Shown piece after piece: positions 22,346-40,285 of a stretch of 64,000 bases of DNA. Source of the stretch: Pelagibaculum spongiae (GTDB lineage Bacteria; Pseudomonadota; Gammaproteobacteria; Enterobacterales; Pelagibaculaceae); assembly GCF_003097315.1 (NCBI RefSeq), contig NZ_QDDL01000002.1:1-64000 (forward strand), given 5' to 3'. Each line of letters opens with the position of its first letter. Position 1 is the first letter of the stretch. Below the pieces are notes generated by a model, which worked only from the letters and a program-made list of their open reading frames with translations, had not been told where the DNA came from and did no database searches. A program made the translations under genes and the position numbers.

Positions 22346-22429
22346 TTTCTTCCAAACCCGCCCTGTCAGGATAGTTGTCTCTTAACTTAATCCATCCTTT
22401 TTCAATTGAGGATGGCAGGAATTACGGAC

Positions 22430-22936
22430 ATGCCCTCTTATTCTGAAGAAAGAAAACACGCTGTTTTAAAACGATTATTACCTCCTCAAAGCTTATCTAT
22501 TCCTGTGCTTGCTAAAGAAGAAGGTATTTCTGAGGCAGCATTGTACAATTGGCGCAAACGATTTAACCTCTCTGGTCATCCCATGCCTGAAAAACATCTG
22601 AGTTCTGAACAATGGTCTGCTGAAGCTAAGTTTGCTGTTGTCCTTGCAACTGCCAGCTTTAATGAAGCTGAACTGAGTGAATATTGCCGTGAAAAAGGTC
22701 TGTATCCAAACCAGATAAAGCAATGGAAACAAGCCTGTATTCACGGTAACCAATCGGCGGAAAAAGCATCCAAAGCGCCTCGAAAAACGCTTAAAGAAAA
22801 AACAGATGAAAAGAAAATCAAAAAGTTAGAAAAAGAATTGAGACGTAAAGATAAAGCACTTGCAGAGGCGAGCACGCTGTTGATTCTTTCAAAAAAGCTC
22901 GATGCTTGGTACGGAATCGACAGCGAGGACAACTAA
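22430..22936 (+). CDS. IS3-family transposase OrfA
   Basis: 168 residues from the ATG at 22430 (AGGA nine bases upstream). It has two helix-turn-helix parts (LSIPVLAKEEGISEAALYNWRKRF and FNEAELSEYCREKGLYPNQIKQWK), followed by a lysine-rich coiled coil (KKIKKLEKELRRKDKALAEAS) that is the leucine-zipper-like dimerisation region. It binds the element's ends and is the N-terminal part of the OrfAB transposase made by -1 frameshifting at 22891-22897. Confidence 0.85.
   Translation: MPSYSEERKHAVLKRLLPPQSLSIPVLAKEEGISEAALYNWRKRFNLSGHPMPEKHLSSEQWSAEAKFAVVLATASFNEAELSEYCREKGLYPNQIKQWKQACIHGNQSAEKASKAPRKTLKEKTDEKKIKKLEKELRRKDKALAEASTLLILSKKLDAWYGIDSEDN
22891..22897 (+). other. Programmed -1 frameshift heptamer A AAA AAG
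   Basis: The heptamer is in the correct phase of OrfA (codons AAA 22892-22894 and AAG 22895-22897). OrfB lies in the -1 frame and is open across this site. This is the classical IS3-family signal that fuses OrfA to OrfB. Confidence 0.8.
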
Positions 22937-23982
22937 CGTCACTTGCACAGCGCCAGCAGTGTTTGGAATGGTTTCATCAAGCCATTACTGAGGGTGCGCG
23001 CCGTCGCCAAGCTGCTGATATATTGAATATCAGCTTGAAAACACTGAACCGTTGGCAAGACAAAGCAGGCAAAACTATAGAAGACCAACGTCCATTGGTG
23101 GTTAAAGATATGCCTGCTAACAAGCTGTCAAAGGAAGAAGAAAAGACAATATTAAATATTAGTAATCAAAAAGAATTCAGTCGGTTACCGCCTTGTCAGA
23201 TTGTCCCTACGCTTGCAGATCGCGGCACCTATATTGCCAGCGAATCCTCTTGGTACAGAGTATTAAGACGAAATGGCCAATTAACGCATCGAGGCCGTAG
23301 TAAAAAGCCTCATAAACGGCGAAAGCCGACAACGCATATCGCGACAAGCGCAAATCAAGTCTGGACATGGGATATTAGTTATTTACCTTCTCGAACCAAA
23401 GGCTTGTTCTGGTATTTATATTTGATTGTCGATATTTACAGTCGAAAAATTGTTGGCTGGGAAGTCTATGAAGTGGAATCGGGTGAGTATGCCAAGGTAT
23501 TGGTAGCGCGCACTTTATTATCAGAAAATTGCTTGAAAAACCCACCCGTACTTCATTCTGACAATGGTGCGCCGATGAAGAGTTTTACCTTTAAGGCGCG
23601 CCTCGAAGAATTAGGTGTTGGATCTTCATATAGCCGTCCTAGAGTCAGTAATGACAACCCTTATTCAGAATCGTTGTTTCGAACGGTGAAATACTGCCCT
23701 GAATATCCGAGCAGCGGCTTTGCAACTCTGGATGATGCCAGAAGCTGGATGTTAAAATTTGCACGTTGGTACAACCACGAGCATCGACATAGTGGTATCA
23801 AATTTGTGACGCCGCACCAGCGCCATAATAATGAAGACAAGCAACTACTTGAAAAGAGAGTGGCGGTTTATGAATTGGCTAAATCAGAACATCCAGAGCG
23901 ATGGCCAGGCGCAATCAGGGATTGGAGCCATATAAATGAAGTCGCTTTAAATCCAGAAAGAGAAAGGGCGGGTATAAATTAA
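22906..23982 (+). CDS. IS3-family transposase OrfB (DDE catalytic domain)
   Basis: 358 residues as drawn from TTG at 22906, but probably made mainly as the OrfAB fusion. It has a helix-turn-helix (GARRRQAADILNISLKTLNRW), then the HTH_21-like stretch, then the retroviral-integrase-like core: WTWDISYLPS (first D), VLHSDNGAPM (second D) and SNDNPYSESLFRTVK (E), finishing with WYNHEHRHSGIKFVTPHQRH. All three acidic catalytic residues are present and no stop interrupts the frame, so the element could be active. Confidence 0.88.
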   Translation: MVRNRQRGQLTSLAQRQQCLEWFHQAITEGARRRQAADILNISLKTLNRWQDKAGKTIEDQRPLVVKDMPANKLSKEEEKTILNISNQKEFSRLPPCQIVPTLADRGTYIASESSWYRVLRRNGQLTHRGRSKKPHKRRKPTTHIATSANQVWTWDISYLPSRTKGLFWYLYLIVDIYSRKIVGWEVYEVESGEYAKVLVARTLLSENCLKNPPVLHSDNGAPMKSFTFKARLEELGVGSSYSRPRVSNDNPYSESLFRTVKYCPEYPSSGFATLDDARSWMLKFARWYNHEHRHSGIKFVTPHQRHNNEDKQLLEKRVAVYELAKSEHPERWPGAIRDWSHINEVALNPERERAGIN

Positions 23983-24048
23983 TCTAAAAAGGGACAACTA
24001 CCTTGAAAAATACCGCAAATCAAAAAAACAGCCATAAATTAAAATCGC

Positions 24049-25154
24049 GGATTCGTATCATAAGTGCATAACCTCTGTTTGCTAGCAGAGGTTGAGTTAA
24101 AAGAAGAGCTCAAATATTTTCTCTGTTGGCGACCAAACCAAACTGAGGCCACAATGAGCTACAAACATCTGAACTCTGAAGAAAGATACTATATTGAGAC
24201 ACGCTTAAAAATGGGCGACTCGCTTAACACTATTGTCAGCAGCCTTCAGCGCAACCAGAGTACACTTTCCAGAGAAGTGAAACGCAACACAGGTTTACGA
24301 GGCTATCGCCATAAAAAAGCTCAAGAATTTGCCCAAAAACGCCTTGAAGACAAGCCTAAACAGAGAAAGATTACTGAAGCTACTGTCGATTATATTTGCT
24401 ATGGATTAAAGGAACATTGGAGTCCGGAACAAATTGCAGGGCGCGCAGACAAAGATGGTTTGTTTAAGATGCACCATCAGACGATTTATAATTTTATTCG
24501 TAAAGACAAAAGATTAGGCGGATTACTGTATCGCTACTTGCCTAGGAAATTAAAACCTTATCGAAAGAAATACGGTAGTTCTGGTGGCTCGTGCAAAGGT
24601 ATTTCAGGGCGGATAGGAATAGAAGATCGCCCAACCATTGTTGATACCAGAGCACGTATTGGAGACTGGGAAGCCTGATACCATTATTGGAAAAGGTCAC
24701 TAAGGTGCGATAGCAACGATTGATGAGCGAAAGAGCAAGCTTCGTCTGGCAATGCCGGTTCAGAAAAAAACAACAGAAAATGTTGTCGGTGCGCTGATTA
24801 GCTTACTACTGCCGATTAAAAAGCATGTTAAAACAATAATATTTGATAATGGAAGAGAGTTCGCTAGCCATCAAAACTTAAGCAAAAAAAATTAAGTGCG
24901 ATAATTATTTTGCAAAACCTTATAGCTCTTGAGAAAGAGGGCAGAATGAAAATGCTAATGGATTGTTACGACGTTACCTCCCAAAGACGATGTCTTTGAA
25001 AAATATTAAAACCAAGAAGTGATAGAAGCGGTTGATCGATTGAATAGTCGCCCAAGAAAATGTTTGAATTACCAAACTGCATACGAAGCATTTGAAGCAG
25101 AAACCAAGATCAGTAGAAAATAATTGCTGGGTTATGCACTTAAGATTTGAATTC
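24049..25154 (+). mobile_element. IS30-family insertion sequence, inactive
   Basis: About 1.1 kb bounded by 25-bp imperfect inverted repeats matching at 21 of 25 positions: 24049-24073, and the complement of 25130-25154, sharing AAGTGCATAACC. The single transposase gene inside is broken (separate entry). It sits 42 bases from the right end of the IS3-family element. Confidence 0.8.
24154..25123 (+). pseudogene. IS30-family transposase, broken
   Basis: The first 175 codons from the ATG at 24154 are intact (LNSEERYYIETRLKMGDSLN, the HTH SLQRNQSTLSREVKRNTG, and HWSPEQIAGR). A one-base insertion in GAAGCCTGATACC (about 24674-24679) ends the frame at GDWEA; in the shifted frame DTIIGKGH continues, then a TAA at 24701-24703 replaces the expected Gln codon. 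Farther on IIFDNGREFASH and NENANGLLRRYLP, the rest of the DDE site, and AVDRLNSRPRKCLNYQTAYE are still readable between further stops. The transposase cannot be functional. Confidence 0.9.
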
Positions 25155-27527: not shown

Positions 27528-27675
27528 AGCATTCTCAACTCAAAAACTAATAGCGCGCAGATATTACTCCCTGCATCAGTAAAACCCAAATTATCTGGGA
27601 AATCTCTTGATCTGGACTATCTTTTGCTCTGTCAACGGCAGGATACAGACCAATAAAAACCTTCAGGGAAGCCCC

Positions 27676-28560
27676 ATGAAAAAACAATTGATTTTGCTCA
27701 GCTTTGCCGCATTAAGTCTTGCGATGCCAAGCGCTCATGCTCGAACCATTTCGATCAATATGACCAATTTAATGCATGGCACTTATATTACGCCGCAAAT
27801 TGCAGCGACCCATACCAGTAGCTACACCCTATTCCGGGTCGGAACAGATGCCACTGAAGCGCTACGCATTATGGCTGAAACCGGTAATGTGGGTGCGTTG
27901 AACAAAAACACATCAACGCTAACAATTGGTGGCCCAGGTGGTGCCACTGGAATTGTTGCCGATCTAAACAATAACAACCAGCTTGATGGGCAAATACCCA
28001 GCACTTCAGATCAAGTAGTTAACGCATCAGGCACCAACGACACTGCACCGGTGATTTTGCTAGCCCCAGGTACCAATCAAGATTATACCGATATCAACCT
28101 CACTGAATCGAATACTCATCTTTCAATTGTCGGCATGTTAATGCCTTCCAATGATGGCTTTGTTGGCTTGGATAGTTGGAAAATCCCCGCAGGCACGGGT
28201 AGCTGGGTTGTTTATTTAAATGCTTACGATGCCGGGACTGAAGCAAACACTGAGCAAACCATCCCTGCCAGTGAAACTGATCAAACAGCCGCCGATGGTG
28301 CTTGCAATTTAGCTTTAGATGAAACCAATACTTGTACCGGCGTTTTTATTCCATTCCATCCAGATGCTGGCAATAATAATGCAGCTGGTTTTGGTGTAGG
28401 TGGTTCAGCTGTAGGTGCAACAGATTCCAATGATAAAGTCCATATTCATCGTGGCCACCTAGGTGAGCTGGATGCCAGTGATAACACCGGTGATTTAAAA
28501 GCTAAAGTCCATCGCTGGTTAAATCCGGTTGCCAAGGTCGTCATTACCATTAGCGAATAG
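27676..28560 (+). CDS. Spondin-domain exported protein
   Basis: 294 residues from the ATG at 27676 (CAGGGAA upstream). Signal peptide MKKQLILLSFAALSLAMPSAHA. The mature part is a spondin_N-like domain: INMTNLMHGTYITPQIAATH, GTDATEALRIMAETGN, then SIVGMLMPSNDGFVGLDSW, AYDAGTEANTEQ and KVHIHRGHLGEL. In bacteria these are secreted calcium-binding C2-like domains of unknown role. The next gene, 15 bases on, encodes a second, lipid-anchored spondin protein, so the pair probably works together at the cell surface. Confidence 0.8.
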   Translation: MKKQLILLSFAALSLAMPSAHARTISINMTNLMHGTYITPQIAATHTSSYTLFRVGTDATEALRIMAETGNVGALNKNTSTLTIGGPGGATGIVADLNNNNQLDGQIPSTSDQVVNASGTNDTAPVILLAPGTNQDYTDINLTESNTHLSIVGMLMPSNDGFVGLDSWKIPAGTGSWVVYLNAYDAGTEANTEQTIPASETDQTAADGACNLALDETNTCTGVFIPFHPDAGNNNAAGFGVGGSAVGATDSNDKVHIHRGHLGELDASDNTGDLKAKVHRWLNPVAKVVITISE

Positions 28561-28575
28561 CCAGGAGCAATTACG

Positions 28576-29292
28576 ATGAAAAAATTACTTGCTCTGCCGC
28601 TACTGTTTTTATTCTGCGCAGTAACATTAATCAGCTGTTCAGATAACGACAACCGTAATTACCAATATCGAATATCGGTACTTAACCTCACCAACAATCA
28701 GCCGATTTCGCCCATGGCTGTTATTGTTCACAGCAATCAATTTAATGCATGGGAAAATGGCGCAGCTGCTTCAGTCGCATTAGAAAAACTCGCAGAAGCC
28801 GGTGAACCTGATGATTTAATTGCATTGGCGGATGCTTCTAACGATGTCTATTATCACGCCGCTTTGGGTGAACAAAACCTACAAGCTGGCAATTCAATAT
28901 TGTTAGATATAAGTTTTGTTACTCATAAAAATAATCCGTTAATGCTGACCATTGCAGGCAAATTACAAAATACCAATGATGGTTTTGCCGGACGAACCAT
29001 GATCGATTTACAGCAGCTTGCATTTACTGATCACAACAAAGCGTCAATCAATTTATTTGCATGGGACAGCGGCACTGAAGCCAATACAGAAACTGAGGCA
29101 ACTATATCTGGCCCTGCAGGTACTGGAACCGGCTTTGACGCATCAAGGGTTGGCGATATTGATAAAGTTTCACAACATATCGGCATTATTGGCAATCAAG
29201 GCGATAAATTAGCTTTAACTGACTCAGTATTAACCAGCAGCCATAAGTTTGACAATCCGGTCGCCCGAGTTTTTATTACTCGAACTAATTAA
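28576..29292 (+). CDS. Spondin-domain lipoprotein
   Basis: 238 residues with a lipoprotein signal (LLALPLLFLFCAVTLISC, lipobox LISC at about residue 21). The same domain as the previous protein: ISVLNLTNNQPISPMAVIVH, LEKLAEAGEPDDL, AGKLQNTNDGFAGRTMIDL and LFAWDSGTEANTETE. Diverged from its neighbour but aligned over the full domain. It lacks the region between EQTIPASET and HIHRG of the first protein. Cotranscribed with it, and followed by a bidirectional terminator. Confidence 0.78.
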   Translation: MKKLLALPLLFLFCAVTLISCSDNDNRNYQYRISVLNLTNNQPISPMAVIVHSNQFNAWENGAAASVALEKLAEAGEPDDLIALADASNDVYYHAALGEQNLQAGNSILLDISFVTHKNNPLMLTIAGKLQNTNDGFAGRTMIDLQQLAFTDHNKASINLFAWDSGTEANTETEATISGPAGTGTGFDASRVGDIDKVSQHIGIIGNQGDKLALTDSVLTSSHKFDNPVARVFITRTN

Positions 29293-29370: not shown

Positions 29371-30081
29371 TTAAAACAACCTAGCAGCCAATGCCGTGAC
29401 CGCAGTATCTACTCGTAAAATTCTTGGGCCTAAATTGACCGAAGCCAATCCTGCTTCTTGCATTTTTTCCACTTCATAGGGAATCCAGCCACCTTCTGGG
29501 CCAATCGCTAGTACGGTTGACTGTGCAGCATGTCGTGGGCAGCTCAAGCTGGCACGAGGATCTGCCACTAACCCTAGTTTTCCACAAGTAATTGCTGGTA
29601 GACGATCTTCAACAAAAAGCTTGAATCGTTTTTCAATAATAACCTCAGGTAGCACGGTATCTCGCCCTTGCTCTAAACCCAAAATCAGCTGCTCTCTAAT
29701 CGTTTCTGGCTCCAACCATGGAGACTGCCAAAAGCTTTTTTCTACTCGATAGCTATTGAGCAAGATCAACCGTTCAATACCTAAAGTAGCCACATGCTGA
29801 AAAATTCTTTTAAGCATTTTCGGCCGAGGCAAACCGAGCAGTAATGTTAACGGCAGCCGTGGCGGCGGTGGGGTATCTAACACGATTTGATCGAGTAATA
29901 ATCGATTCGATGACAGCTCAATAATTTTCCCCTGCCCCATCTTGCCGCCCAGCAAACCAACTTTAAGTGTCGAGCCAATCTCTGGTTTGATATGGGTTTT
30001 TACATGCTGGAATCGACGGTCAGTTAACTTAACTTGACCGTTTTCAATAAAATCAGCAGCTTCGAGCAGGATCAGGTTCAT
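29371..30081 (-). CDS. rsmE: 16S rRNA m3U1498 methyltransferase
   Basis: 236 residues. SAM-dependent methylation of U1498 in 16S rRNA on the 30S subunit. An N-terminal PUA-like domain (RRFQHVKTHIKPEIGSTLKVGLLGGKMGQG) is followed by a SPOUT domain with the knot residues LAIGPEGGW and VNLGPRILRVDTAVTALAA at the end. ERLILLNSYRVEKSFWQSPWL is the conserved middle block. The gene follows the large repeat-protein gene with about 90 bases between. Confidence 0.92.
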   Translation of the reverse strand: MNLILLEAADFIENGQVKLTDRRFQHVKTHIKPEIGSTLKVGLLGGKMGQGKIIELSSNRLLLDQIVLDTPPPPRLPLTLLLGLPRPKMLKRIFQHVATLGIERLILLNSYRVEKSFWQSPWLEPETIREQLILGLEQGRDTVLPEVIIEKRFKLFVEDRLPAITCGKLGLVADPRASLSCPRHAAQSTVLAIGPEGGWIPYEVEKMQEAGLASVNLGPRILRVDTAVTALAARLF

Positions 30082-30171: not shown

Positions 30172-31581
30172 CTAAAAAACAACCTTGCGAATCATCGCTC
30201 CGTCAAGGCGCTCCCAGAATTCTTCCAGCCCCCGATGGTTCTGCCTCAAGCAAATATTCACTGAATCAGCCGCTAACTTGTCGTCAATGCCGTCGATTAA
30301 TTCAGCCAATAAATGCGGGTTATTTAGCATGCTTGAATTAATCTGCTTTGCCATTGCAGGCACATCTAACGCATTGGAAAATGTTGCTAACCGCTCAGTG
30401 TCTGCCGCCCAAAAACGATTTAACTGATTGGCCGTTTGCAATGGTTTTACCTGACTGGCTAAGCTGGCGAGCAAATCAGGCTCATAAAACATCCAACGAT
30501 CTATCACTTGTCCCAGCAGTTTTTTATCCAGTGAACGTAAAACAGTTAAAAATTCTTGCTGGTTATCCGCCAGCATACGATTCAAAGTAAACGACAGTCG
30601 ATGGGCGTCTAATTCACCTAAAAATGAAGATAACCAACCGGGGTTTAATTGCAGCACTTCGTTAATCACCCTTGCAACCTGCTCGGGCCGTAAACCATTA
30701 ATTAAATTGGCCGGGCCATCTGGTTTCATGGCAGTTGCTTGGCGAACAATCGTGGCAATCCGCTGGCTATCTAAGCCGGATAACACCTTAGCAAAAGCGG
30801 TGGCATTCAAACGATGTAACAACTGATTGACCTTTTCTGGGTCACTAATTACCAACTTATTAATGCTTTGTGCCACTAGCTTGGCATCACTGCCTTGCCA
30901 GATTTCAGCCAATAGATTTGGCCGCGACTGCAGCAATTGACTAATACTTTTTGCAAGCTGTTCACTGGAAAGCGGCTCGACTAATTGCTGCAATAAGTCA
31001 GGGTTGGCTTGATATAGCTTACCGACGCCATCGCCAATTTTTTTCGGGTCTAACCCGGCAATCATCAGTGGAATTAGTTCAGGATATTGCTGGTCAATGT
31101 GCAGTGATAAATCAACCCAGCGCCGCTGAGGAATTTGCGACAGCACTTGTAAACCACGGCCATCGGCTAATAAACCATCGACTATTTTACCGACTTGTTT
31201 CGGATCGACCTGCTGCAGAATTTCAGCTGAGAATTGCGGATGATCTCCTAATGCCTTATTCAGTGCTTGGCCGAATAGTTTAGGATCAAGTCCTTTGATG
31301 TATTCACTGATAATCGCTGGATCCTTCTCCAGTGACAAATTAACCATTGCTGCAACCGACTGATGATTGATCTGCCCTAAATAGCGATGGAGTAAATCCG
31401 GGTTTTGCCGCAGGTAATAATTTGCTGCAGGCACTACAAAACGACCGCTGACCTGTTCAATCCATTTCTCGGCATGCCCGGTATAAAAACCAAACGGCAG
31501 CACCACGAAAACCAACAGAATTAGTATTAAATTCAGTAAATTGAGCAATCTCTGCAAGGCAGGATGAAGCAGCCCGGTCAT
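30172..31581 (-). CDS. Membrane-anchored protein of about fifteen 27-residue helical repeats
   Basis: 469 residues, not a family I can name. A hydrophobic stretch (LLNLILILLVFVVLPFGF, about residues 15-32) would anchor it, followed by some 20 residues. From about residue 54 to the end the chain is almost wholly 27-residue repeats: N-x-x-L-x-x-x-P-x-L-L-x-x-x-h-x-x-L-D-x-x-x-h-A-x-x-h. Examples are NLSLEKDPAIISEYIKGLDP and NEVLQLNPGWLSSFLGELDA. One repeat is half length. This predicts a two-helix alpha-solenoid, with local similarity to the helical repeats of MgtE N-terminal domains. There is no catalytic motif; a scaffold or protein-binding role is plausible. Confidence 0.6.
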   Translation of the reverse strand: MTGLLHPALQRLLNLLNLILILLVFVVLPFGFYTGHAEKWIEQVSGRFVVPAANYYLRQNPDLLHRYLGQINHQSVAAMVNLSLEKDPAIISEYIKGLDPKLFGQALNKALGDHPQFSAEILQQVDPKQVGKIVDGLLADGRGLQVLSQIPQRRWVDLSLHIDQQYPELIPLMIAGLDPKKIGDGVGKLYQANPDLLQQLVEPLSSEQLAKSISQLLQSRPNLLAEIWQGSDAKLVAQSINKLVISDPEKVNQLLHRLNATAFAKVLSGLDSQRIATIVRQATAMKPDGPANLINGLRPEQVARVINEVLQLNPGWLSSFLGELDAHRLSFTLNRMLADNQQEFLTVLRSLDKKLLGQVIDRWMFYEPDLLASLASQVKPLQTANQLNRFWAADTERLATFSNALDVPAMAKQINSSMLNNPHLLAELIDGIDDKLAADSVNICLRQNHRGLEEFWERLDGAMIRKVVF

Positions 31582-37851: not shown

Positions 37852-37876
37852 CCCTCCATCAAATAAATTGGGAGGG
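37852..37876 (+). promoter_or_regulatory. Hairpin hiding the ribosome binding site of the 37886 lipoprotein
   Basis: CCCTCC at 37852-37857 is complementary to GGAGGG at 37871-37876, which is the Shine-Dalgarno sequence nine bases before the ATG at 37886. A perfect 16-bp palindrome GTTTTCATATGAAAAC lies just upstream (37826-37841). This is possible structure-based control of translation, inferred only from complementarity. Confidence 0.3.
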
Positions 37877-37885
37877 AAAATTACA

Positions 37886-38695
37886 ATGAAAAAACAGCTT
37901 TTAGCAATTTTAATTTGCACTACATTAGCAGCATGCGGCGGCGGTAGCGGAAGCAGTTCTGGCGAAACCACACCCCCTGCAGGCTCATTCGACCCAGCAT
38001 CTTTTATGGGTAAAGCCGATGAACCGACGCTACAGCTGCTAAATATTCCCAACGGTGAAGAAATACAGCTCAATCAGCAATCCAACATCACTTTCTCTAC
38101 TGGTACTGTAATCTATAACTTCAACCCAACTAGTTCGGGAAAGGTTTCAATAGTTGTATCAGGCAACAGAAATTTTAACTTCAATGTTACTGGTCAGGAA
38201 GAAATTGAAGCGCCATATTCTGATGATTCTATTCGTTATCTGGTACTGGACGCAGTAGCTGAGCAATCCTACCAAATACAGGTTAATAGCAACCCAGGAG
38301 CTGAATTAAATATAATCGTTGCTGAAGCCAACAGAGAAACCCTGGCTATTGAAGATGGTGAAGTATATTTCTCTGGTCTAATGGCTACAACAGAGAACTG
38401 TTTTGGTAGCGAGACCACGTATACTCCTACTCATTTTGTGATCGACTTTACTGACAACTATTTCCAGTATGGTGATCGTACCTATGACAGATACCCAATA
38501 ACTGTCGATTCAACTGGCCGTATTTTTAATTTTGAAAACGACTTTGAAGACGCTTCACGCACAGGGTCTATCATGGTTTCCGGACTTTCAGGCAGTATTA
38601 TTTATCAAGAAACTGCAAAGGAAACTACCTCAAACGGTGACAATCAAACAGAATGCACCACTAAAAAACTCATTAACGCAATGCCTGTGCTGTAA
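37886..38695 (+). CDS. Lipoprotein, first copy of a duplicated pair
   Basis: 269 residues. The lipobox is in ILICTTLAACGGGSG with Cys at about residue 18, followed by a Gly/Ser spacer. The mature domain has SFMGKADEPTLQLLNIPNGE, then YNFNPTSSGKVSIVV, EAPYSDDSIRYLVLDA, VAEANRETLAIEDGEVYF and FTDNYFQYGDRTYD. The same blocks occur in the lipoprotein at 39335. No known domain is recognised; a beta-rich outer-membrane lipoprotein is likely. Start ATG at 37886 with GGAGGG nine bases upstream. Confidence 0.7.
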   Translation: MKKQLLAILICTTLAACGGGSGSSSGETTPPAGSFDPASFMGKADEPTLQLLNIPNGEEIQLNQQSNITFSTGTVIYNFNPTSSGKVSIVVSGNRNFNFNVTGQEEIEAPYSDDSIRYLVLDAVAEQSYQIQVNSNPGAELNIIVAEANRETLAIEDGEVYFSGLMATTENCFGSETTYTPTHFVIDFTDNYFQYGDRTYDRYPITVDSTGRIFNFENDFEDASRTGSIMVSGLSGSIIYQETAKETTSNGDNQTECTTKKLINAMPVL

Positions 38696-39334: not shown

Positions 39335-40285
39335 ATGAAAAAAGTAATTTTAGCAATTTTAGTATCTAGTGCATTGGTAGCGTGTGGAGGCGGTTCAAGT
39401 GGAAGCTCTGATCCAGTAAATACAGGTACTGAAACAGGTACTGAAACAGGTACTGAAACAGGTACTGAAACAGGTACTGAAACAGGCACTGAAACAGGTA
39501 CTGAAACAGGCACTGAAACAGGCACTGAAACAGGCACTGAAACAGGCACTGAACAACCTGTTTTTTCGATTGAAAAGTTTAAGGGGAAAGCCTCAGAACC
39601 GACCATTCAAACTGTTTCACTTGATACTGGCGATCAGATTGAACTGAATAGCAATCTGCAAGCCACTATTGCTCAAGGTGGTGCATCGACTTACACCTAT
39701 ACAGCTGCTGTTGATGGTAAAGTGGCTGTGGTAATGGAAGGAACTAGCTACAACTTTGCTCTTAAAGTTACTGGCTATCAAACAGACTTGGAATCACCTT
39801 ATTCGGACACTTTTAAGCAATATTTAGTTTTTGAAGCATTACAAGGCCAAGCCTATCCAATTATTATTGAAGGACAAAGCAGCGCTAGCTTTAAATTAAA
39901 AGTGACTGAAGCAAATAGAGAGACTATTGGCGCTGTTGGCGATGAATTATATTTTCAGGGTCAAGATAGCAGTATAACAACCTGTAGCAATGGCGAAAGT
40001 TACGATGAATCTGGCTTAAACCATATTTTCATCAACTATACCGAAAAATATGCTCAGTATGGCGATAGGACTGATGAAAAAGACAGCTTTGTTGTTAACG
40101 GTAATGTTGCTTCGGCTAGCAACACTGATGAAGATGGCGAAACATACAATGGCACCTTCACCATTACTGATACTGAAGCCGGTACCGTTGTTCTTGAAGC
40201 AACTGGCACATATGATCCTGACACCCCTAGTCAAGGAGTGACTTGTACTGGCACAACCAAAATGACGGGTAAATTTTTGCTGTAA
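39335..40285 (+). CDS. Lipoprotein with eleven TGTE repeats, second copy of the pair
   Basis: 316 residues. Lipobox in LVSSALVACGGGS. After a short Ser/Gly spacer, residues 30-73 are eleven exact TGTE repeats encoded by a 12-bp DNA repeat. The remaining 240 residues align with the 37886 lipoprotein (KFKGKASEPTIQTVSLDTGD, ESPYSDTFKQYLVFEALQGQ, TEANRETIGAVGDELYFQG, YAQYGDRTDEK). The repeat would act as an extended acidic stalk holding the domain away from the membrane. A terminator follows. Confidence 0.75.
   Translation: MKKVILAILVSSALVACGGGSSGSSDPVNTGTETGTETGTETGTETGTETGTETGTETGTETGTETGTETGTEQPVFSIEKFKGKASEPTIQTVSLDTGDQIELNSNLQATIAQGGASTYTYTAAVDGKVAVVMEGTSYNFALKVTGYQTDLESPYSDTFKQYLVFEALQGQAYPIIIEGQSSASFKLKVTEANRETIGAVGDELYFQGQDSSITTCSNGESYDESGLNHIFINYTEKYAQYGDRTDEKDSFVVNGNVASASNTDEDGETYNGTFTITDTEAGTVVLEATGTYDPDTPSQGVTCTGTTKMTGKFLL
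39422..39553 (+). repeat. Eleven tandem 12-bp units encoding TGTE
   Basis: Unit ACAGGYACTGAA, 11 copies without interruption. Only the third base of the Gly codon varies: GGT in units 1-5 and 7, GGC in 6 and 8-11. The near-identity indicates recent expansion, and the 12-bp unit keeps the frame whatever the copy number. Confidence 0.95.

What the first reader, a model, noticed from the sequence alone, without database searches (positions are those of the whole stretch)
30172..31581. Membrane-anchored array of about fifteen 27-residue repeats
Lining up the protein by NxxL...P.LL...LD...A shows near-constant 27-residue spacing from residue 54 to the end, with one half unit. This is a regular two-helix solenoid on a membrane anchor with no catalytic signature. 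I know no named family with this period and layout; MgtE N-domain repeats are only locally similar.
Basis: seen in the sequence. Interest (0 to 1): 0.58.

Follow-up and report, generated by a model that had tools for sequence, protein, structure and literature searches.

The report
Membrane-anchored MgtE-like helical repeat rod
A bacterial protein found so far in a single genome has a membrane anchor followed by about fifteen copies of a two-helix unit that probably folds like parts of the magnesium channel MgtE and the flagellar rotor protein FliG, and it may be a structural scaffold.

Summary
The ORF at 30172-31581 (minus strand, 469 aa) has one hydrophobic anchor, then an array from residue 55 to the last residue: 13 units of exactly 27 residues, two irregular units and one 12-residue half unit. 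The 27-residue period has z = 12.0; the highest of 2000 shuffles over all lags is 4.6. Units share about 21% protein identity and 31% at third codon positions, so the array is old.

The claim of no related family is only partly right. The whole protein passes Pfam's MgtE_N cut-off (29.4 against 25.9 bits), though none of five fragments does. A four-unit model (mean pLDDT 72) has MgtE cytosolic domains as its four best Foldseek matches (prob 0.99-1.00, E 0.08-0.4); FliG and MgtE lead the second look (Z 8-10, under the tool's caution level for repeats). MgtE_N repeats every 12/24 residues, this array every 27.

No other copy was found in the collections searched. Best reading: an expanded, membrane-anchored MgtE_N/FliG-type solenoid acting as an envelope scaffold. 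The fold is moderately supported; the function is inferred. New variant of a known kind.

The parts
30172..31581 (-). 469-aa ORF: membrane anchor plus helical repeat array
   Evidence: codon usage
31483..31548 (-). residues 12-33, hydrophobic signal anchor (or long signal peptide)
   Evidence: hydropathy maximum at residues 12-30; lies in helix 6-47 of the single-sequence model
31420..31482 (-). residues 34-54, linker between anchor and array
   Evidence: low model confidence
31177..31419 (-). residues 55-135, three regular 27-residue units
   Evidence: A2 profile 125.9 bits (a row of A2 itself)
31021..31176 (-). residues 136-187, two irregular units (27 and 25 residues)
30778..31020 (-). residues 188-268, three regular units
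30742..30777 (-). residues 269-280, 12-residue half unit, the length of one MgtE_N helix module
   Evidence: MgtE_N period 12; best Pfam MgtE_N stretch 236-307 spans it
30175..30741 (-). residues 281-469, seven regular units up to the stop codon; residues 281-388 were modelled
29371..30081 (-). RsmE-family rRNA methyltransferase, next gene downstream (90-nt gap), possibly co-transcribed
   Evidence: NF008700 330.7 bits
29308..29339 (.). 14-bp palindromic terminator-like hairpin between the convergent rsmE and spondin-domain genes (listed by the scan on the + strand)
   Evidence: consensus match only; 6 found in the region against a shuffle mean of 3.1, sd 2.2

Best explanation
The gene encodes an inner-membrane protein with its N-terminus in the cytoplasm and its repeat array in the periplasm. 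The array is a long alpha-solenoid of the MgtE_N/FliG (ARM-like) type, in which every second helix has grown by about three residues, turning the 24-residue (2 x 12) period of MgtE_N into 27 (12 + 15), and which has been multiplied to about 31 helices. It most likely works without catalysis as a tethered curved scaffold: a face of the array, possibly lined by the repeated asparagine at unit position 27, binds an extended partner segment or the rim of a membrane complex, as other tethered or secreted MgtE_N modules do (FlbB, MotE, FlgY of the flagellar E-ring). Shown: array, period, anchor-like segment, helix pattern of a fragment, best matches to MgtE/FliG folds. Inferred: periplasmic side, fold and handedness over the whole length, the route from 24 to 27, partner binding.
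For: Period 27 with 54 and half-unit harmonics. MgtE_N 29.4 bits over a cut-off of 25.9, E 1.2e-6, best stretch across the half unit; fliG model E 1.9e-6, far below its cut-off. AF2 of residues 281-388 with three self-rows: pLDDT 72, pTM 0.63; after two short helices, helices of 14/8/14/10/14/10 residues. Foldseek ranks 1-4 are MgtE (prob 0.99-1.00, rmsd 1.9-2.3 over 69-72 columns, 25-27% identity). VIA ranks 1-10 are all MgtE or FliG (Z 10.4-8.1), rank 11 a chain of a FliF-YlxF model (Z 7.4); the first unrelated entry has Z 6.2. Self-comparison of 12 MgtE N regions peaks at 12 and 24, of 9 FliG regions at 12. Hits in other genomes include, by eye, MgtE (L031) and FliG (L002, L003, L033, L037, L038, L128). 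Periplasmic MgtE_N proteins are described: about two thirds of FlgY homologues have an N-terminal TM segment, one third a signal peptide (PMC13023049, abstract and passages).
Against: None of 97 Foldseek matches reaches E 0.001, and Z 8-10 lies under the level (about 13) at which the tool trusts repeats; five of the MgtE rows have rmsd above 9. The model rests on an alignment of the protein with itself; the full-length single-sequence model has pLDDT 51. Profile comparison with 12 MgtE N regions gives only 28% and 21% probability (E 0.0006 and 0.001 for the single pair), with FliG 2%. None of five fragments passes the MgtE_N cut-off (best 20.2 bits), and the six-frame MgtE_N search of the own genome did not list this gene. 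No homologue means no conservation test, no co-evolution and no shared neighbourhood, so the scaffold role is inference. Topology rests on weak charge differences.
Confidence: 0.5

Rival explanations
1. A convergent alpha-solenoid: the 27-residue two-helix unit arose by its own amplification in this lineage and resembles MgtE_N and FliG only because short amphipathic helices with N-P and D-P caps stack in the same way.
For: Weak profile probabilities (28%, 21% and 2%); different period; no intermediate sequences in any search made; best Foldseek E 0.077.
Against: MgtE is on top in both a curated sequence model and the structure search, ahead of Pumilio and importin folds; the half unit of 12 residues equals the MgtE_N/FliG module.
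Confidence: 0.3
2. A cytoplasmic, membrane-attached solenoid (N-terminus out) acting on a cytoplasmic partner, as MgtE_N itself does inside the cell; the neighbouring rRNA methyltransferase gene would hint at an RNA- or ribosome-linked role.
For: MgtE_N in MgtE and FliG_M are cytoplasmic (established knowledge); the gene lies 90 nt before an rsmE gene on the same strand.
Against: Arg11 before and a net-neutral segment after the hydrophobic stretch weakly favour N-in (read from the sequence). No co-occurrence evidence for a link with rsmE: the array was not found in 58 other genomes of the order, nor this RsmE at E up to 1e-20 in 27 others.
Confidence: 0.25
3. A covalent relative of the flagellar E-ring proteins (FlgY/MotE/FlbB): the array wraps the flagellar motor or another envelope machine.
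For: Similar parts (N-terminal anchor, MgtE_N-type superhelix); the genome has fliG; a chain of a FliF-YlxF model (which of the two proteins is not shown) is VIA rank 11 (Z 7.4).
Confidence: 0.08

Closest known systems
MgtE_N (Pfam PF03448), cytosolic N domain of the MgtE Mg2+ channel
   Same: Short stacked helices with D/N-P caps; best Pfam hit and best Foldseek hits
   Different: Period 12/24 against 27; 102-position profile against about 415 residues; no CBS domain match and one hydrophobic segment; own genome has a separate true MgtE (97.3 bits)
FliG ARM-like middle domain (PF14841)
   Same: Fold of the model (3ajc Z 10.4, rmsd 3.7); the segment around the EHPQ motif (motif name recalled) of a FliG was the best one-unit profile hit outside this genome in the class search (L128, 20.1 bits). 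An alpha-solenoid review counts FliG among ARM proteins (PMC11514114, passages)
   Different: Rotor protein with few ARM-like units; sequence score below the cut-off (17.7 against 25); own genome has a separate fliG (86.3 bits)
FlgY/MotE/FlbB/YlxF E-ring proteins
   Same: N-terminal TM segment or signal peptide plus MgtE_N-type superhelix, in the periplasm where characterised (PMC13023049 abstract and passages, PMC11870540 passages)
   Different: They have a long helix and a small four-membered superhelical head, and their genes often lie by fliJ/fliK; here an array of about 31 helices directly after the anchor region, and no recognised flagellar neighbours

Membership tests
MgtE_N (PF03448) | Profile score over Pfam's curated cut-off | tested here: met
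   29.4 against 25.9 bits for the whole protein; but none of five fragments passes (best 20.2), and the six-frame search of the genome listed only the true MgtE
MgtE_N (PF03448) | Superhelix of short helices like that of 2yvy | tested here: inconclusive
   Foldseek prob 1.00 but E 0.077 for 2yvy; VIA Z 8.4, rmsd 9.4 for 2yvy and Z 9.9, rmsd 2.2 for 8gpv; four-unit model from a self-alignment
MgtE_N (PF03448) | 12/24-residue helix period | tested here: not met
   27 here, 12/24 in 12 MgtE N regions; one 12-residue half unit present
MgtE transporter | CBS domains and multi-pass channel | tested here: not met
   One hydrophobic segment, no CBS or MgtE channel match at E up to 10
FliG | FliG_M/FliG_N cut-offs and fliG equivalog score | tested here: not met
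   17.7 and 15.5 against 25, 27.5 against 226.7
FlgY/MotE/FlbB E-ring protein | N-terminal TM segment or signal peptide | tested here: met
   Hydropathy only
FlgY/MotE/FlbB E-ring protein | Long helix followed by a small ARM-like head | tested here: not met
   Array from residue 55 to the end; a helix 6-47 is predicted but is mostly the anchor, with low confidence from residue 28 on
FlgY/MotE/FlbB E-ring protein | Gene near flagellar genes (often fliJ/fliK) | tested here: not met
   No flagellar gene recognised, by eye, among the ORFs of at least 150 aa in the 64-kb window
Canonical armadillo/HEAT repeat | About 42-residue three-helix ARM or about 37-residue HEAT unit (sizes recalled) | tested here: not met
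   27-residue two-helix unit; no ARM or HEAT family among the Pfam hits at E up to 10

The most novel reading that the evidence does not exclude
The protein is a covalent concatemer of the ring-forming ARM-like module that FlgY and FliG assemble from separate subunits: about fifteen modules in one chain, tethered to the inner membrane, acting as a built-in curved ruler or arc around an envelope machine, in a lineage (gamma-proteobacteria, by my inference) reported to lack the E-ring.
Probability: 0.07. Interest if true: 0.65.

Novelty: new variant of a known kind. Interest (0 to 1): 0.36.

Why it matters
MgtE_N-type modules are known as small domains in a Mg2+ channel and as subunits that form flagellar rings. 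A single-chain array of about fifteen such units on a membrane anchor would show that this fold can be extended like TPR or HEAT repeats, and would give a natural template for long regular bacterial solenoids. It is an orphan without neighbours of linked function, so the biological weight is modest until a partner or phenotype is known.

Tried and rejected
Homologue searches with P0001 (counts include the own genome): relatives, 1 of 59 at E up to 0.001; order, 51 of 394 at E up to 1, best other E 0.0012, a FliG by eye; class, 13 of 369 at E up to 0.05, best other E 0.0009, a MgtE by eye; viral contigs, no pattern match; genome contigs, 29 and 80 pattern stretches, none confirmed by tblastn; plasmids none at 0.01; phages one tape-measure match at E 0.09. 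The tools say that records of the own or very near genomes may be left out of the collections. Profile searches: three-unit A2, order 19 of 388 at E up to 0.05, best other 0.0033; phylum 2 of 299 at E up to 0.01, other 0.007. One-unit A1: own genome, 13 hits in this ORF and one at E 3.6 elsewhere; class, 10 of 339 at E up to 0.05, one hit in each of the 9 others.

My first readings of the fetched loci looked, for most loci, at the plus strand alone, although loci of minus-strand matches are not turned. I therefore repeated this on both strands: in 69 fetched loci (437 open frames over the match region), no frame but P0001 has two or more units over 8 bits. The hits for which no locus was fetched were not read.

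Rejected: that genus g43 (order search) held homologues with a conserved anchor; the five such loci I read hold MBOAT-like membrane proteins (four) or an off-frame stretch in a cytochrome bd-like gene (one), by eye. PDB sequence searches gave nothing credible: 2 matches at E 0.58 and 0.62, 7 at E 0.11 or more, 16 at E 0.033 or more. PHROGs: best E 0.025. PADLOC: JetA at E 2.1e-5, 21.6 bits, residues 393-439, no single stretch passing; taken as chance helix resemblance, since only 47 residues match. Other Pfam hits below cut-off include NAAA-beta, Cut8 and XPC-binding. A conserved place beside miaB was rejected: of 20 upstream regions taken, 13 show an FAD-monooxygenase-like gene, by eye among the last seven ORFs of at least 120 aa; those genomes had no P0001 match.

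Literature: no report of such an array in the listings of searches 31 (20 of 118 listed), 47, 70, 71, 73, 81 and 83; '27-residue repeat' phrase searches and PF03448 are among these. Only the PMC open-licence library was searched. A mesothelin paper, met through a search on ARM asparagine ladders, was seen in passages only and not used.

Full report
OBSERVATION. The ORF at 30172-31581 on the minus strand encodes 469 residues. Self-comparison with BLOSUM62 of residues 51-469 peaks at lag 27 (z 12.0) with a second peak at 54; 2000 shuffles never exceed z 4.6 at any lag from 8 to 139. Lags 12, 39, 66, 93 and 120 are also raised, as one 12-residue half unit would cause. A profile with free phase jumps divides residues 55-469 into 15 units and one half unit: thirteen regular ones of 27 residues, an irregular pair at 136-187, and the half unit at 269-280. 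The consensus reads roughly xLLxxNPxLLxELLxxLDPKxLAxxIN. Seven columns were more constrained than any of 3000 random columns: N6, P7, E12, D18, A23, the aliphatic column 26 and N27 (8 Asn among 13 units). Units share 21% protein identity on average, 39% DNA identity, and 31% at third codon positions, so the duplications are old.

IS IT A GENE. Codon usage resembles neighbouring housekeeping genes (index 0.721; the ten reference genes 0.68-0.78; random synonymous versions 0.605, sd 0.017). The index was built from those ten genes, so their own values are somewhat favoured. The gene lies between an RsmE-family methyltransferase gene (same strand, 90 nt downstream; 330.7 bits) and miaB (divergent). 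A palindromic terminator-like hairpin follows rsmE, so a two-gene unit is possible; promoter-like sites were no more than chance (4 against 5.1 in shuffles).

FAMILY. Pfam places the whole protein over the MgtE_N cut-off (29.4 against 25.9 bits, E 1.2e-6), the best stretch (236-307) spanning the half unit. FliG models score, but far below their cut-offs. In five fragments the MgtE_N score is 20.2 bits or less, or absent. HHalign of three- and four-unit profiles against 12 MgtE N regions gives 28% and 21% probability (pairwise E 0.0006 and 0.001), against 9 FliG regions 2%. So sequence evidence points to the MgtE_N/FliG type but is not decisive.

STRUCTURE. The full-length single-sequence AF2 model is poor (pLDDT 51) but almost wholly helical, with a helix rhythm that follows most units. 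For residues 281-388 I gave AF2 three other three-unit stretches of the same protein as alignment rows; the model has pLDDT 72, pTM 0.63, residues 100-108 under 50. Foldseek against the PDB: 97 matches at E up to 10, none at 0.001; ranks 1-4 are MgtE structures (E 0.077-0.36, prob 0.99-1.00); FliG first appears at ranks 13 and 15. The VIA second look of 283 chains puts FliG or MgtE at ranks 1-10 (Z 10.4-8.1) and a chain of a FliF-YlxF model at 11 (7.4); the next, unrelated entry has Z 6.2. Five of the MgtE rows have rmsd above 9, and the tool warns that repeats may reach such Z by a common arrangement. I take this as moderate support for the fold class.

HOW IT DIFFERS. Twelve MgtE N regions repeat at 12 and 24 residues and nine FliG regions weakly at 12 (mean z 3.6, 3.5 and 2.0). 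Here the unit is 12 + 15: the helix that starts after D18 runs 14 residues in the model, about one turn longer than a 12-residue module allows. The half unit of 12 residues has the MgtE-like length. That the 27-residue unit grew from the 24-residue one is inference.

DISTRIBUTION. No second copy was found; each search with its counts is in Tried and rejected. Of 69 fetched hit loci, none has a frame with two or more units over 8 bits, while P0001 has 13. The relatives search, which draws first on genus and family, gave no other genome of the window's family, and some collections leave out near relatives, so the protein may well exist in unsampled sister species. The same genome has an ordinary MgtE (97.3 bits, contig C1) and a FliG (86.3 bits, contig C7). 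The gene was not seen upstream of miaB in 20 relatives.

MECHANISM. One hydrophobic segment at about 12-33, Arg before it and a near-neutral stretch after it, suggests N-in and an array in the periplasm; cleavage after the GHA at residues 35-37, if it occurs, would also put the array in the periplasm (reading of the sequence, low confidence; no signal-peptide program was run). No enzyme family reached its cut-off. Known membrane-tethered or secreted MgtE_N-type proteins (FlbB, MotE, FlgY) are structural or chaperone-like: they bind or ring flagellar machinery (PMC13023049, abstract and passages; PMC11870540, passages). By analogy the most likely job is a tethered scaffold or partner-binding arm. 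The Asn at position 27 in mid-helix could form a ladder like the one that ARM proteins use to hold an extended peptide (ARM comparison recalled, not tested).

VERDICT. Real, regular and unusual in layout; fold class probably known; function unknown but probably structural; known from one genome only. New variant of a known kind, modest interest.

Noticed in passing
window 27607-28560 and 28576-29292: Two adjacent genes on the plus strand both encode spondin-domain proteins (NF038123, 132.9 and 137.6 bits), an apparent tandem duplication.
   Followed up: partly
window 39335-40285: Lipoprotein-like ORF with a 12-bp tandem repeat (11 copies, 97% match, at 39422-39553) coding a GTET spacer; a similar ORF without the spacer lies at 37868-38695; neither has a Pfam match at E up to 0.001.
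   Followed up: partly
window 22406-24678: Transposase-like ORFs by eye: an IS3-type pair and a shortened IS30-type ORF.
   Followed up: no
window 29371-30081: RsmE-family gene best matching NF008700; no match at E up to 1e-20 in 27 other genomes of the order.
   Followed up: partly
L128, G437 (349-aa frame): FliG (by eye) whose segment around the EHPQ motif matches the 27-residue unit profile, the best hit outside the window genome (20.1 bits).
   Followed up: partly
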